A DNA stretch of 64,000 nt, taken from Psychrobacillus sp. NEAU-3TGS (lineage in GTDB: Bacteria; Bacillota; Bacilli; Bacillales_A; Planococcaceae). Location of the stretch: NCBI RefSeq assembly GCF_029955155.1, contig NZ_JAPNOZ010000005.1:143548-207547 (forward strand), given 5' to 3'. The position numbers were made by a program, and so were the translations under genes. Numbering within the stretch: position 1 is the first letter of the stretch; each line of letters begins with the position of its first letter. Positions 21,305 through 55,435 of the stretch are shown in pieces. A model generated the notes under the pieces. It did not search any database. It saw only the letters and a program-made list of their open reading frames with translations, and had not been told where the DNA came from.

Positions 21305-21582
21305 ACGACGGCCTCCCCCTGTAATATACTACTAAAAGTATAACATTGAACGGATTTTGATACTAAAAACCCTACCTATTTGAAAACCAGTCTTTGGTTG
21401 GAACTAAAAGTGTATATATCTTTGTTAAATTCATCTGTATATGTTACTCCGAAGACAAGCATAAATAGGATTAGGTCTACATTATAATTCAAGCGAAAAA
21501 TACTAAAGTAGTCCTTATTACATTCTTCTAAAAATTATAATATACTCAAAATGAGGATAAATTAGAGAATGGAGTTACTCAG

Positions 21583-21753
21583 ATGGAGCGTATAAAGCAA
21601 CAAACACTATTATCAAATGCACAAACATCCTTTGATGAATTACTTGCTTTAATTGAGAGTATTCCCTTACGAAATAGGAAAAATCACTACAACTGGGCAA
21701 TTAAAAAATGTGAAATAATAGCGGAAGAAATTAAAAGTAACAAAACCACCTAA
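21583..21753 (+). CDS. Hypothetical 56-aa protein
   Basis: A short open frame starting with ATG 8 nt after a GGAG ribosome site and ending right at a hairpin terminator. The product is mostly helical by composition, has no signal or membrane segment, and contains SFDELLALIESIPLRNRKN and a lysine-rich tail. A TATAAT-like element lies about 45 nt upstream. I do not recognise the family. Presence of start, ribosome site and dedicated terminator supports a real small gene. Confidence 0.65.
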   Translation: MERIKQQTLLSNAQTSFDELLALIESIPLRNRKNHYNWAIKKCEIIAEEIKSNKTT

Positions 21754-21788
21754 GACGTTATAGAATCAAGGTTTTAGGTGGTATTTTT
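21745..21788 (+). terminator. Terminator of the 56-aa ORF
   Basis: ACCACCTAA pairs with TTAGGTGGT around a 20-nt loop, followed by ATTTTT. The stop codon lies inside the left arm. Confidence 0.8.
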
Positions 21789-21834
21789 GATTGTATTTAC
21801 TAGTGTTATTCCGCATTAATCGAAAATTGAACTA

Positions 21835-22260
21835 CTAAAGCATTTTACCTGTATAGAAAGAACTAGCTAATTGATCAAAATCATAATCTTTCAATTCCTC
21901 TAGAGTTATATTTGCATGCGAACCTTCATGTACCATTAAATTACTGTTTGGACCAAGATGGATTAAAATAACAGGCTTGTCAGTGGCATAAGCATAACCA
22001 AGTTCCCACGCTGTTCCACTGTCCGAATAGTTACCATGATAGATACCTACGACGATTTCTGCCCACTTAATATGTTTTATATCATTCATAAATGTTTCAA
22101 TGGACCATTGACGTGAACCCACCTCAACACGTTCATCAATTGGATTTCTAAGCGGAGAGAATACTTTCAAACCTTTTTCCGCCAAAATTGCTTCCACCTG
22201 TTCTAAGCATTCAATCTCCTTCTCGTTAAAAAATGGGCTGGCTAAATATACTCTCTTCAT
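21835..22260 (-). CDS. Nucleoside 2-deoxyribosyltransferase-like protein
   Basis: Protein of 141 residues of the nucleoside 2-deoxyribosyltransferase family (PF05014): RVYLASPFFNEKE at the start, FMNDIKHIKWAEIVVGI with the acidic pair in the middle, and SDSGTAWELGYAYATDKPVI carrying the conserved catalytic Glu. Such enzymes exchange bases on deoxyribonucleosides or hydrolyse the bond. The long frame begins at 22317, but AAGGAG just before 22260 and the match to family N-termini select MKRVYLA. It stands alone; a nucleotide-salvage role is inferred from the family only. Confidence 0.88.
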   Translation of the reverse strand: MKRVYLASPFFNEKEIECLEQVEAILAEKGLKVFSPLRNPIDERVEVGSRQWSIETFMNDIKHIKWAEIVVGIYHGNYSDSGTAWELGYAYATDKPVILIHLGPNSNLMVHEGSHANITLEELKDYDFDQLASSFYTGKML

Positions 22261-22420
22261 TGGTTTAATCTCCTTCAATTTTTGATAATTACTTACAACG
22301 GTTGAACATTTTATCATTTACCAGCCAATTGTATCTCAAACGGTCTTCCATTCAAATACCCCGAGTAAATACTAAAATTTATTATAGAAATTAGCTGCCC
22401 ATCAGTAATCTGTTTGGCAA

Positions 22421-22900
22421 TCATTTATGATAAGGTTCATTTTTTATAATCCGAAAAGCACGATAGATCTGCTCCACCAACACCAACTTCATTAACTGAT
22501 GAGGCAAAGTCATTTTACTAAAAGATAACTTTTCATCCGAACGCTTCATCACATCCTCATGCAAACCAAGAGATCCGCCAATAACAAAAGCGATTTTGCT
22601 TCGTCCATATGTCATTAACGACTCTAAATCACTGGCAAGCTGCTCAGATGACTTCATCTTTCCATCAATTGCAAGCGCAATTACATAAGTGTCAGCTCCA
22701 ATTTTGGAGAGAATGCGTTCACCTTCTTTTTTCTTCACGATTTCCATATCGGCTTCACTTAAATTTTCCGATGCTTTTTCGTCCGGTACTTCCACCAAAT
22801 CAATTTTCGCATAGCTACTTAATCGCTTCGAGTATTCCTCTATCCCCAATTTTAAGTATTTTTCTTTTAACTTCCCTACCGAAACAATTTGTATATTCAC
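22421..22900 (-). CDS. rlmH: 23S rRNA pseudouridine-1915 N3-methyltransferase
   Basis: SPOUT-family methyltransferase of 159 residues that methylates pseudouridine 1915 in helix 69 of 23S rRNA on assembled 70S ribosomes. It has the usual length; the SAM-binding knot shows [13 protein letters not shown] and the C-terminus ends with [19 protein letters not shown], the family's diagnostic tail. The start is GTG at 22900 with an AAAGGTGG ribosome site. It is at its conserved place next to htrC near the origin, and its promoter region is filled with DnaA boxes. Confidence 0.97.
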
Positions 22901-22903
22901 AAG

Positions 22904-23319
22904 TTATCCACCTTTACATTCTGTTTACAAACAAGTTATACACATAACTTATACACATATCCACAATGCTTATCTACATATTGTGTTTTATTTTTCATTT
23001 TCTACAATATATATTGCAGCGACATTACAGTATGCGCATTTTGTGGATAACTTTTCGTTCTCATTTATTTTTTCAAGCATTGGGAAGGTTTTTTGTTCTG
23101 CAACGAACATGTCCAAAGCTTGATTTATATGAGTTTCACAACTGAATATTCTCAATTTTATACTTCCTTTCGTTTTCCGAATAATTTAATAAGTTATGCA
23201 CAAAACATTCGTGCTTATCCACAATCTATTTTATCAAATGAAAAACGAGTAGGAAAGAACAGCATTTCTTTTCCTACTCGTTGTGTAAATCTTTTATTTA
23301 CAATTCATAGTTATCCACA
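22904..23319. other. DnaA-box cluster between rlmH and htrC
   Basis: Three perfect TTATCCACA boxes (23042-23050 minus, 23215-23223 plus, 23311-23319 plus) and at least six one-mismatch boxes (22904, 22936, 22949, 22957, 22970 and 23194) occupy about 415 bp. The stretch otherwise holds only the htrC terminator and no supported gene. It may titrate DnaA or make rlmH expression DnaA-responsive. Confidence 0.7.
23241..23282 (-). terminator. Terminator of the htrC gene
   Basis: A 13-bp perfect stem (AACGAGTAGGAAA with its complement) followed on the minus strand by five Ts. Confidence 0.88.
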
Positions 23320-23322
23320 TGT

Positions 23323-24564
23323 TTATAATGTATCTGTTTCTTTTAATACAATCGTTAGTTCCACTAATTTTCCTTGGCGATATACTTTTACTTTCAGCTC
23401 ATCACCAATTTCTTTTTCATTGTATAAATGCTTTCTTAGCTCAATCGTGTTTTCTATTTTTTGACCATCCATTTCTACAATAACATCATAAGGTTTCATC
23501 CCTGCTAAAGCTGCTGGAGTATTTTCTATTACTTGATCTACTACAACTCCTGTTGTCACTTCAACTGGTAATTTTAACGTATCACGTTGATGAATCGCAG
23601 GTACATTTGTTACATCGACCAACGTAATTCCCATAGATGGACGATTTACTTTTCCGTTAGCCTCTAGGTCTTCTATAATTGGAATAGCGGAATTAACTGG
23701 TATTGCAAGTCCCATACCTTCTACGGTAGACTCTGAAATTTTCATCGAATTTATTCCTATTAATTGTCCTGCTAAATTGATCAATGCTCCACCGCTATTC
23801 CCTGGGTTAATCGCTGCGTCTGTTTGTAAAACCTCCGCTTGCCAATCTTCTACACCATCTCCGTTTATATCTGTAGGTATAGCACGATCTTTACCAGATA
23901 CAACACCAGTTGTGACAGAACCGTAGAAATCAAGTCCTAGTGGGTTTCCAATCGCAATGACAGATTCTCCTTGCTTTAATGCATCTGAATCTCCAAACTC
24001 TATGACTGTATCCACGCCCTTATCGTCAATTTCTAAAACTGCTAAGTCTGTCCATACATCACTACCAACTAATTTAGCTTCCACTTTTGCACCATCTGCT
24101 AAAGTTACTTCTACCGCCTTTGCACCTTCGATTACGTGATGATTCGTAATGACATATGCTTTACCATTTTCTTTTTTATAAATTACTCCGGAACCTGTTC
24201 CAGCTTCCTGTTCTGATTGGGATTGACTCCAAAAATTCGTTACTGATTGGATATTTGAAACTCCAACAACAGCTCCCGACGCTTTTTCTACGGCGCTTGT
24301 CACGTCTGTAGTTATATCCACGGAGAGCTGTTCTGTTTTTGCATTAGTATTAGTTGTTTTAGTAGCATTGTCGGCGGGTAAATTTGTCACGACAGAAGGT
24401 ACTAAAAACCATACAAGTAAAGCTCCAACTAATACACCCGCTAATCCACTAAAAAAATAACCAGCTACACCTCGTTTTTTTTCCCTCTTTACTTCTCGTT
24501 TTTTTACTACAGGTTCTTCTATTTTCGATTCTTCTTGTGGTCCGTATGGATTATTTGGTTCCAT
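23323..24564 (-). CDS. htrC: HtrA-like membrane-anchored serine protease (YyxA type)
   Basis: S1C-family quality-control protease of 413 residues. A basic cytoplasmic segment (1-33) leads to one membrane anchor (about 34-58) and an extracytoplasmic trypsin-like domain with His143 (ITNHHV), Asp173 (TDLAVLEI) and Ser257 (NPGNSGGAL), then a C-terminal PDZ domain (about 315-405, MKPYDVIVEMDGQKI). It degrades misfolded secreted proteins. It sits downstream of walJ, as in B. subtilis, but a terminator at 24660-24691 and its own upstream palindrome indicate separate control. Confidence 0.95.
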   Translation of the reverse strand: MEPNNPYGPQEESKIEEPVVKKREVKREKKRGVAGYFFSGLAGVLVGALLVWFLVPSVVTNLPADNATKTTNTNAKTEQLSVDITTDVTSAVEKASGAVVGVSNIQSVTNFWSQSQSEQEAGTGSGVIYKKENGKAYVITNHHVIEGAKAVEVTLADGAKVEAKLVGSDVWTDLAVLEIDDKGVDTVIEFGDSDALKQGESVIAIGNPLGLDFYGSVTTGVVSGKDRAIPTDINGDGVEDWQAEVLQTDAAINPGNSGGALINLAGQLIGINSMKISESTVEGMGLAIPVNSAIPIIEDLEANGKVNRPSMGITLVDVTNVPAIHQRDTLKLPVEVTTGVVVDQVIENTPAALAGMKPYDVIVEMDGQKIENTIELRKHLYNEKEIGDELKVKVYRQGKLVELTIVLKETDTL

Positions 24565-24588
24565 GTTTTATCTTCCTCTCTTTTTTAT

Positions 24589-24608
24589 GTAACTGTTTGT
24601 ACAGTTAC
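24589..24608. promoter_or_regulatory. Perfect inverted repeat upstream of htrC
   Basis: GTAACTGT-TTGT-ACAGTTAC, 8-bp arms with a 4-nt centre, 25 bp upstream of the htrC start. It could be an operator for a dimeric repressor or stress regulator, or a leader hairpin. Confidence 0.45.
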
Positions 24609-24659
24609 TTTACCCAACTCACATTAAAATAAGATGAAAATTGGTTGAAAGATAAATAA

Positions 24660-24691
24660 AAAAGTTCCAAAGCCTGAACTTTGGAACTTTT
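24660..24691 (-). terminator. Terminator after walJ (end of the wal operon)
   Basis: A 13-bp perfect stem AAAAGTTCCAAAG with a 6-nt loop, T-rich on the minus strand, 5 nt after the walJ stop. Confidence 0.9.
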
Positions 24692-24696
24692 ACTAT

Positions 24697-25485
24697 TTAA
24701 ACGGAAACTAATTCGGTTGGAACATTCGCATCTGTATCGTGAAGATGTACATATTCTCCTGCAATAACTCCACAAGATTCTAACGTTTGTGCAACGCTCA
24801 TTCGTGCAAGATCTTTCATATTATTATCTTTACTTAAATGCGATAAATAAATATGCGTGTTTTTAATATCCACCACTTCACTCATTGCAACTGCAGCATC
24901 TTCGTTGGATACATGTCCTACGTCACTTAATATCCTTCTTTTAATAGACCATGGATAGCGTCCCATTTGAAGCATACTCACATCGTGGTTGCTTTCAAAA
25001 ACAAATGAATCCGCTCCTTTTATATGCCCTTTCATTCTGTCGCTAACATACCCAGTATCCGTAATTAAGACAAGTTTACGACCATTTTCATGAAAGATAT
25101 AAAACATTGGGTCTGCCGCATCATGTGATACTGCAAATGACTGAATATCAATACTACCAAATGTTTTCACAGCTTCCATATCAAATTGGAATCGTTGTTC
25201 AACCGGCACATTCCCAATAAGAGAATCCATTGCTAGCCATGTTTTTTCATTTGCATAAATAGGAATCCCATGTTTTCTTGCAACGACACCTAGTCCTTTA
25301 ATATGATCACTATGCTCATGAGTAATAAAAATACCCGACAATTTTTTTATATCGCGATCTATCTCGCTAAAAAGCTGCTCCATCTTCTTACCACTTAAGC
25401 CTACGTCTACTAAAAAAGAATGCTCCTCATTTTCCACATAAATAGCATTCCCACTACTCCCACTTGCTAAAACACTAAACTTCAT
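24697..25485 (-). CDS. walJ: WalJ metallo-beta-lactamase fold hydrolase
   Basis: Metallo-beta-lactamase superfamily protein of 262 residues with the metal motif [12 protein letters not shown] (55-66), a later His in [10 protein letters not shown] and Asp in [10 protein letters not shown]. subtilis WalJ (YycJ) is a 5'-exonuclease-like DNA-processing protein linked to replication-division coordination and cell-wall control. Last gene of walR-walK-walH-walI-walJ, 12 nt after walI, with a terminator just after. Confidence 0.95.
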
Positions 25486-51052: not shown

Positions 51053-51070
51053 TTATCCACATGTGAATAA
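51053..51070. promoter_or_regulatory. Pair of DnaA boxes upstream of mnmE
   Basis: A perfect TTATCCACA (51053-51061, plus) abuts an inverted TTATTCACA (51062-51070, minus). They lie in the mnmE promoter region. Confidence 0.6.
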
Positions 51071-54091: not shown

Positions 54092-55435
54092 TTGGAACAT
54101 TTAGAAGAACTTTGGGCAAAGGTTCTCTCTGAAGTAGAAAAGAAAACATCGAAACCTAGTTTTGAAACTTGGTTAAAGTCGACGAAGCTACTTTCATATA
54201 AAGGAGAGACTGTTACAATAGCTGCGCCGAATTCCTTCGCAAGAGACTGGCTTGAAAACCATTATGTCCATTTAATTGCTGGAATTTTGACAGAAGTAAC
54301 TGGTAACGAACTTCTTATTTCTTTTGTTGTACCAAAGAACCAAGACGTAGAAGAGTTTGATATACCAAAACCGAAAATCCCTAACACTAATGGAGAACAA
54401 TCTGAGTTTTCCCCTGGAATTTTAAATTCTAAATACACGTTTGATACTTTTGTTATTGGATCAGGAAACCGTTTCGCTCATGCTGCTTCTTTAGCCGTAG
54501 CAGAGGCACCTGCAAAAGCATATAATCCTCTATTTATATATGGAGGAGTTGGACTCGGAAAAACCCACTTAATGCATGCGATTGGTCATTATGTACAAGA
54601 ACACGATCCCAATGCAAAAGTGGTTTATTTATCTTCTGAAAAATTTACGAATGAATTCATTAACTCTATTCGTGACAATAAAACCATTGAGTTTCGCAAT
54701 AAATACCGGAACATAGATGTCCTGTTAATAGATGATATTCAATTCCTTGCCGGAAAAGAATCAACTCAAGAAGAATTTTTCCATACTTTCAACGCATTAC
54801 ATGAAGAATCCAAACAAATTGTCATTTCAAGTGATAGACCGCCAAAAGAAATTCCTACACTGGAAGATAGACTCCGTTCCCGCTTTGAATGGGGCTTAAT
54901 AACAGATATAGCGCCACCAGATTTAGAAACAAGAATTGCTATCTTGCGTAAAAAGGCAAGAGCTGACGGACTAGATATTTCGGATGAAGTAATGGCCTAT
55001 ATAGCAAATCAAATCGATTCGAATATTCGGGAGTTAGAAGGGGCATTAATACGCGTGGTTGCTTATTCTTCTCTTGTAAATAAAGATATAAACCCGGAAC
55101 TTGCAACAGAAGCACTAAAAGATATTATGCCTAATGCACGTCCAAGAATTATTACCATTTTAGACATCCAAAAAGTAGTTGGGGAGCATTTTCACATTAG
55201 GTTGGAAGATTTCGCGGCTAAAAAACGAACTAAATCTATTGCATTTCCTCGTCAAGTCGCAATGTATCTTTCTAGAGAACTGACAGACTTTTCTCTGCCG
55301 AAAATCGGGGAAGAGTTTGGTGGCCGAGATCATACGACTGTTATTCATGCACACGAGAAGATTTCTAAAATGCTTAAAGATGATACAAATTTGCAAGATG
55401 ACTTAAAACAAATAAAAACTATTTTAGGGAGATAA
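54092..55435 (+). CDS. dnaA: Chromosomal replication initiator DnaA
   Basis: AAA+ initiator of 447 residues: domain I (1-85, [16 protein letters not shown]), short linker, AAA+ domain III with Walker [11 protein letters not shown] (about 150-159), Walker [10 protein letters not shown] and sensor regions, and domain IV with the signature [12 protein letters not shown] that reads DnaA boxes. The start is TTG (54092) behind AAAAGGAGA. It melts the unwinding element and recruits the helicase loader. Boxes flank it on both sides. Confidence 0.98.

What the first reader, a model, noticed from the sequence alone, without database searches (positions are those of the whole stretch)
22904..23319. Second DnaA-box cluster 30 kb from oriC, between rlmH and htrC
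Three perfect and six near-perfect boxes in about 415 bp rival the density at oriC. DnaA-box clusters away from the origin act in B. subtilis as DnaA reservoirs; one here, replicated early, would quickly titrate DnaA after initiation.
Basis: partly seen in the sequence, partly recalled or inferred. Interest (0 to 1): 0.6.

Follow-up and report, generated by a model that had tools for sequence, protein, structure and literature searches.

The report
Fixed-spacing DnaA-box cluster upstream of rlmH
About thirty kilobases from the replication origin, this bacterium has a conserved array of binding sites for the replication starter protein DnaA, the counterpart of one measured in Bacillus subtilis; its near base-exact spacing, kept even where the small gene it overlaps has been lost, hints at an ordered protein complex and not only a loose sponge.

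Summary
The cluster is real. The 422-bp rlmH-htrC gap holds six exact TTATNCACA boxes (three TTATCCACA) and ten with at most one mismatch, as dense as oriC and far above chance. The gap is not empty: it contains the small gene yyzF (22988-23155, -), and one box lies inside it. The place matches a B. subtilis site where DnaA binds upstream of yydA (rlmH) around yyzF (apparent Kd 0.16 uM) and the yyzF-yydABCD operon is a reported direct DnaA target (passages). New here is the conservation. In 77 same-family loci the boxes keep near base-exact distances (20/21, 152, 92/93, 13 bp). The box inside yyzF is nearly fixed at synonymous sites, and it persists with its register in eight Sporosarcina loci without recognisable yyzF. 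Of 119 loci outside the family, 88 also have two or more boxes and 25 have none. Titration is plausible but unproven: in B. subtilis a strong effect needed removal of six clusters together, and a simple sink would not need fixed spacing. Verdict: new member of a known kind, with a rigid architecture that makes 'sink or structured complex' testable.

The parts
22936..22944 (+). box F, TTATACACA; 13 bp from box E
   Evidence: exact in 47 of 77 family loci
22949..22957 (+). box E, TTATACACA; 93 bp from box D
   Evidence: exact in 59 of 77 family loci
22957..22965 (+). near-box ATATCCACA overlapping E by one base
   Evidence: a word with at most 2 mismatches at this offset in 68 of 68 family loci that have an E/F-type pair
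22970..22978 (+). near-box TTATCTACA, 13 bp from the previous near-box
   Evidence: at most 2 mismatches at this offset in only 15 of 68 family loci
22904..22912 (+). near-box TTATCCACC overlapping the likely rlmH ribosome-binding site
   Evidence: the overlap is read from the sequence
23042..23050 (-). box D, TTATCCACA, inside yyzF (codons TTA TCC ACA = Leu-Ser-Thr)
   Evidence: exact in 65 of 77 family loci
23194..23202 (+). box C, TTATGCACA; 152 bp from box D
   Evidence: exact in 69 of 77; fifth base is C in only 1 of those 69
23215..23223 (+). box B, TTATCCACA; 21 bp from box C
   Evidence: exact in 69 of 77; fifth base is C in all 69
23311..23319 (+). box A, TTATCCACA, just after the htrC stop; position less constant in relatives
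23294..23302 (+). near-box TTATTTACA
   Evidence: TIGR04129 E 3.9e-19, PF14116 YyzF E 1.7e-17
22421..22900 (-). rlmH (B. subtilis yydA)
   Evidence: NF000985, E 9.1e-77; 1to0 'yyda' is the best PDB match
23323..24564 (-). HtrA-type serine protease gene next to yycI/yycH/walK (position of htrC/yyxA)
   Evidence: below the curated equivalog cut-offs, so the name htrC rests on position
54092..55435 (+). dnaA, with oriC box clusters on both sides

Best explanation
This is an oriC-proximal DnaA-binding cluster, the counterpart in this organism (probably Psychrobacillus) of the B. subtilis cluster around yyzF upstream of yydA/rlmH. DnaA should bind the boxes as a complex of fixed geometry: an upstream pair (B, C) before yyzF, one inverted high-affinity-type box inside yyzF (D), and a tandem array before rlmH (E, F and an overlapping near-box). 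Two consequences are inferred from B. subtilis. First, being copied within minutes of initiation, it takes up DnaA together with the other clusters and so helps delay re-initiation. Second, the bound complex lowers transcription of yyzF-rlmH. Shown here: the boxes, their conservation, spacing, codon-level constraint and persistence without yyzF. Shown elsewhere for B. subtilis: binding, and operon regulation. Inferred: binding in this organism, the effect on initiation, and any need for the geometry.
For: Exact boxes in the 450 bp upstream of rlmH average 5.09 in 77 family loci, against 0.052 in shuffles, 0.039 downstream of rlmH, 0 inside rlmH and 0 at -1150 to -700. Distances in the fitted family loci: B-C 20 or 21 bp in 72 of 72; C-D 152 in 62 of 75 and 151 in 8; D-E 92 or 93 in 71 of 76; E-F 13 in 73 of 73. 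Outside the array, htrC end to B ranges from 79 to 363 bp. The ignored fifth base of box C is free (top base 39%) while its other eight are 97-100% conserved, against a 64% mean in neighbouring noncoding columns (61 of 77 loci in exact register). Inside yyzF the serine of box D is TCC in 63 of 67, although TCC is 11% of serine codons in rlmH and 3% elsewhere in yyzF. Eight Sporosarcina loci without recognisable yyzF keep the register: 311 bp without gaps, box columns invariant 38 of 40 against 145 of 266. B. mojavensis and B. halotolerans have D, E and F words at the same 93- and 13-bp distances, E and F with one mismatch each. B. subtilis binding and regulation: passages.
Against: No DnaA binding data for this organism. 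Fits allowed 2 mismatches and searched limited distance ranges; with exact boxes and wide ranges C-D is 151 or 152 in 56 of 63 placements, and D-E is 92 or 93 in 44 of 60 (15 others are 72, from a near-box pair that my rule picked first). Loci share ancestry, so counts are not independent. Of 119 loci outside the family 25 have no box, 11 of these with yyzF. Several other yyzF codons are also almost uniform (Glu, His, Ile and Tyr codons at 95-100%). Some reviews doubt a large role for such clusters in B. subtilis.
Confidence: 0.6

Rival explanations
1. The cluster is mainly an operator: DnaA bound here tunes yyzF-rlmH transcription with replication status, and any titration is incidental.
For: In B. 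subtilis the yyzF-yydABCD operon is listed among direct DnaA targets and appears repressed (passages). The array covers the space from before yyzF to the rlmH ribosome-binding site, and rigid spacing suits an operator.
Against: The array persists in eight Sporosarcina loci without recognisable yyzF and clusters occur without yyzF in all 11 Staphylococcus-like loci examined, so yyzF is not the needed target; rlmH remains possible. The promoter scan found no promoter-like site on the gene strand in 22800-23400 and fewer sites than shuffles. About 400 bp of boxes is long for a simple operator.
Confidence: 0.25
2. A passive sink in which only the number and affinity of boxes matter.
For: Removing six clusters gives early initiation in B. 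subtilis, partly relieved by putting one back at various locations (review passage).
Against: Number and affinity do not explain fixed distances or the contrast between B (C at the fifth base in 69 of 69) and C (C in 1 of 69).
Confidence: 0.1
3. The boxes are carried along by another conserved feature, such as an RNA or the yyzF coding sequence.
For: yyzF spans much of the C-D interval, and some non-box columns are also conserved.
Against: No Rfam match in 21500-25000 up to E = 1. The free fifth base of box C and retention without yyzF point to DnaA recognition.
Confidence: 0.04
4. Chance boxes in AT-rich DNA.
For: Near-matches are common in this window: 111 against 92.9 expected.
Against: 0 of 20,000 shuffles had more than 2 exact boxes, and the boxes are conserved across the family.
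Confidence: 0.01

Closest known systems
B. subtilis DnaA-binding region 8 (upstream of yydA, downstream of yyzF)
   Same: Same gene position; box inside yyzF, then words 93 and 13 bp further on, in the B. mojavensis and B. halotolerans loci used as proxies.
   Different: No B. subtilis locus was fetched. In the proxies the E and F words have one mismatch each and the upstream boxes are at -354/-355 and -320/-321, not the B/C pair of this family. Binding here is untested.
E. coli datA
   Same: A DnaA-box cluster outside oriC, near it, copied early; box orientation and intervals matter (review passages).
   Different: datA works with IHF and promotes ATP hydrolysis; B. subtilis is said to lack IHF and datA. 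No such activity was tested here.
E. coli DARS1/DARS2
   Same: Core of three boxes with constant spacing, one opposite to the other two (review passage); D against E and F has the same orientation pattern.
   Different: D to E is 93 bp; no IHF or Fis site was looked for; no nucleotide-exchange evidence.
ywlC and jag-trmE clusters of B. subtilis
   Same: Boxes also occur at these places in this genome.
   Different: Fewer exact boxes (two each).

Membership tests
oriC-outside DnaA-box cluster of the B. subtilis type | three or more DnaA boxes close together outside oriC | tested here: met
   six exact boxes in 422 bp
oriC-outside DnaA-box cluster of the B. subtilis type | same gene neighbourhood as a B. 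subtilis cluster | tested here: met
   yyzF and rlmH/yydA identified; B. subtilis region 8 lies there
oriC-outside DnaA-box cluster of the B. subtilis type | bound by DnaA in vitro and in vivo | not testable with these tools
   needs ChIP or DNA affinity purification in this organism
oriC-outside DnaA-box cluster of the B. subtilis type | contributes to initiation timing | not testable with these tools
   needs deletion and marker-frequency analysis
DnaA-regulated yyzF-rlmH operon | yyzF directly upstream of rlmH on the same strand with boxes around both starts | tested here: met
DnaA-regulated yyzF-rlmH operon | promoter covered by boxes | tested here: inconclusive
   no promoter-like site on the gene strand was found by the simple scan
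datA / DARS | stimulates DnaA-ATP hydrolysis or ADP release | not testable with these tools
   biochemical assay needed
datA / DARS | IHF (and Fis) sites in fixed register | not tested
   not searched; B. subtilis is said to lack IHF

The most novel reading that the evidence does not exclude
The array is not a sink but a machine of fixed geometry: DnaA bound at B/C, at the inverted box D and at the E/F array forms a looped complex that changes the state of DnaA (nucleotide exchange, hydrolysis or oligomer disassembly), a Bacillales counterpart in function of datA or DARS, which B. subtilis is said to lack. Selection on this geometry would explain why the register outlives yyzF.
Probability: 0.08. 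Interest if true: 0.85.

Novelty: new member of a known kind. Interest (0 to 1): 0.52.

Why it matters
How Bacillales tune the supply of active DnaA is open: a 2026 review says it is unknown whether B. subtilis balances the ATP and ADP forms of DnaA (passage). If a cluster outside oriC needs exact spacing, it is doing more than soaking up DnaA. The conserved B-C-D-E-F register gives a precise prediction (half-turn against full-turn spacer changes), and the Sporosarcina loci without recognisable yyzF separate the array from the gene it overlaps.

Tried and rejected
Considered and set aside. An RNA element: no Rfam match in 21500-25000 up to E = 1. A + strand ORF 23093-23464: no family match in NCBIfam or Pfam. 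Helical-turn preference of the few spacing exceptions (C-D 142 twice; D-E 82, 83, 84): suggestive, but too few and searched in limited ranges, so not claimed. The wide-range recount was partly spoiled by my rule for picking E, which chose a near-box pair 21 bp upstream in 15 loci. In one search one locus (L027) could not be fitted and two (L095, L098) fit poorly. L034 was dropped before all family counts because its contig starts 50 bp upstream of rlmH. Two of the eight loci without recognisable yyzF (L088, L195) have a 62-codon stop-free stretch across the region; it lacks the CxxH/CxxC pattern and is closed in the six others.

Limits. The 77 family loci come: the best-matching loci that those searches returned plus loci I chose, not a random sample; 20 of them were taken from one genus to follow the yyzF loss. 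Okumura 2012 and Ishikawa 2007 are not held; I know them only through passages in other papers. That the six clusters deleted there include this one is inferred from the list of eight regions in PMC4447404. Papers were seen as passages only: PMC4447404, PMC5295017, PMC8203912, PMC13220808, PMC5742627; the rest as search listings. The searches listed no paper that I recognised as describing this spacing, but the library lacks most subscription papers, so I do not claim that it is unpublished.

Full report
What is there. The gap between rlmH (22421-22900, -) and an HtrA-type protease gene at the htrC position (23323-24564, -) has six exact DnaA boxes and ten with at most one mismatch. The consensus TTATNCACA is the one given in PMC4447404 (passage). 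The density equals or exceeds that upstream of dnaA. None of 20,000 dinucleotide shuffles had more than two exact boxes, and sliding 422-bp windows reach five only here and upstream of dnaA. Among all 91 TTATCCACA of the genome (complete list), three places have three or more within 300 bp: upstream of dnaA, here, and a site on contig C14.

A gene was missed. On the - strand 22988-23155 encodes a 55-residue CxxH/CxxC protein of the YyzF family (TIGR04129 E 3.9e-19; PF14116 E 1.7e-17). The box at 23042 lies inside it as codons TTA TCC ACA. In rlmH orientation I call the boxes B (23215), C (23194), D (23042, opposite), E (22949) and F (22936); A is 23311.

A known counterpart. In B. subtilis, one of the eight strongest DnaA-binding regions lies upstream of yydA and spans yyzF, with 7 sites and apparent Kd 0.16 uM for ATP-DnaA and 0.33 for ADP-DnaA; these eight are said to be the ones readily detected in vivo (passages of PMC4447404). 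yydA is RlmH: the best PDB match of this rlmH product is 1to0, named yyda. The yyzF-yydABCD operon is listed among direct DnaA targets, apparently repressed (passages). In B. mojavensis and B. halotolerans (RlmH 98 and 97% identical to the B. subtilis chain) the box inside yyzF is at -140, with words at -47 and -34, the same 93 and 13 bp as in this window; these two words have one mismatch each.

Conservation in the family. The window's genus is probably Psychrobacillus: G041, of the same genus, has a contig of the same length as a record of 'Bacillus sp. FJAT-22090' (L160), and Psychrobacillus loci L168 and L172 share its layout. In 77 usable family loci the 450 bp upstream of rlmH hold 5.09 exact boxes on average (2 to 6), against 0.052 in shuffles, 0.039 downstream, 0 in rlmH and 0 at -1150 to -700.

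Spacing. In the fitted loci B-C is 20 or 21 bp (72 of 72), C-D 152 bp in 62 of 75 and 151 in 8, D-E 92 or 93 bp in 71 of 76, E-F 13 bp in 73 of 73. The flanks vary: htrC end to B ranges from 79 to 363 bp, and F to rlmH is mostly 33-34 or 44 but up to 185. The fit allowed two mismatches and limited ranges. With exact boxes and wide ranges C-D is 151 or 152 in 56 of 63 placements and D-E 92 or 93 in 44 of 60. A near-box ATATCCACA-type word overlaps E in 68 of 68 family loci with an E/F pair, and a like word in 51 of 56 outside loci with such a pair; ten control offsets gave 0 of 680 and 3 of 560.

Individual boxes. B is C at the fifth base in 69 of 69 exact copies. C, 20-21 bp away, is C in 1 of 69 (A 24, T 28, G 16). 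In 61 loci in exact register box C's eight fixed bases are 97-100% conserved while its fifth base is 39%, and neighbouring noncoding columns average 64%. That pattern is what DnaA recognition predicts.

The box inside yyzF. In 67 loci with Leu/Ile-Ser-Thr there, serine is TCC in 63, threonine ACA in 67, and leucine TTA in 61 of 62; elsewhere TCC is 11% (rlmH) or 3% (rest of yyzF) of serines, and ACA 47% or 35% of threonines. Other conserved yyzF codons mostly vary, for example Val 39-50%, Ala 48-82%, Pro 55% and Cys 62-82% for the top codon, but four (Glu, His, Ile, Tyr) are also 95-100% uniform. So codon uniformity alone is not unique to the box; the use of an otherwise rare serine codon is.

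Natural loss of yyzF. Eight Sporosarcina loci (seven unnamed, one Sporosarcina sp. P2) have no recognisable yyzF. They are 78-97% identical to each other and about 47-57% to relatives with yyzF in a gapped alignment. Yet from B to rlmH they are 311 bp without gaps, with B-C 20, C-D 152, D-E 92 and E-F 13. Box columns are invariant in 38 of 40 against 145 of 266 others (Fisher p 1.5e-7, columns treated as independent), and within the former yyzF stretch 8 of 8 against 66 of 147. In L024, of the window's genus, yyzF has several stops, while D and the C-D distance of 152 remain and D-E is 82. L098 has no recognisable yyzF and a changed layout.

Beyond the family. Of 119 loci (118 distinct), 88 have two or more exact boxes within 650 bp upstream, 6 have one and 25 have none; 11 of the 25 carry yyzF. 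All 11 loci of family f9, whose L051 RlmH is 85% identical to the S. aureus chain 1vh0 (SAV/SA names recalled as S. aureus), have three or more boxes and no yyzF found. Listeria farberi L176 has six. Loci with none include Terribacillus, Thalassobacillus, Paraliobacillus, Halobacillus and Oceanobacillus.

Position. rlmH lies 28.3-38.6 kb from dnaA in 30 of 31 family genomes measured and 62.7 kb in one; in 12 others 29.0-39.3 kb in ten, 45.0 and 74.5 kb in two. In the six f9 genomes it is on the other side of dnaA. The whole neighbourhood is conserved, so this does not single out the cluster.

How it most likely works. DnaA should occupy the array with fixed geometry. By analogy with B. subtilis it then withholds DnaA from oriC soon after initiation, together with other clusters, and lowers yyzF-rlmH transcription. 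Against a strong single role, the six-cluster deletion mattered only as a set, one review passage denies clusters with significant roles, and DnaA overproduction did not over-initiate. Fixed spacing is what E. coli datA and DARS2 show, where intervals are reported to be optimised and, for DARS2, conserved (passages); hence the bold reading that this is more than a sink.

Noticed in passing
L107 (G000:C14:40500-45000), 1634-2429: Another cluster of eight exact boxes in about 0.8 kb between a DUF2653 gene side and an aromatic amino acid lyase gene. Only parts of the region matched in 14 of 41 family genomes.
   Followed up: partly
L108 (G000:C2:675500-680000), 1668-1806: Two exact and several near boxes at the 5' end of the Sua5/ywlC gene, next to a spoIIR-type gene; B. 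subtilis also binds DnaA upstream of ywlC.
   Followed up: partly
window 51053-51070: Two adjacent opposed exact boxes between mnmE and jag, a place that DnaA also binds in B. subtilis.
   Followed up: no
window 23239-23283: An inverted repeat followed by T's on the - strand, probably the htrC terminator; relatives have different but also self-complementary sequences there (read). The terminator scan did not call it.
   Followed up: no
L211 (Sporosarcina-type locus): yyzF has lost the second CxxC pattern (KPDYG) while the box codons stay, and C-D is 142 bp, ten less than usual.
   Followed up: no
window 21835-22317: A nucleoside 2-deoxyribosyltransferase-type gene lies just downstream of rlmH.
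   Followed up: no
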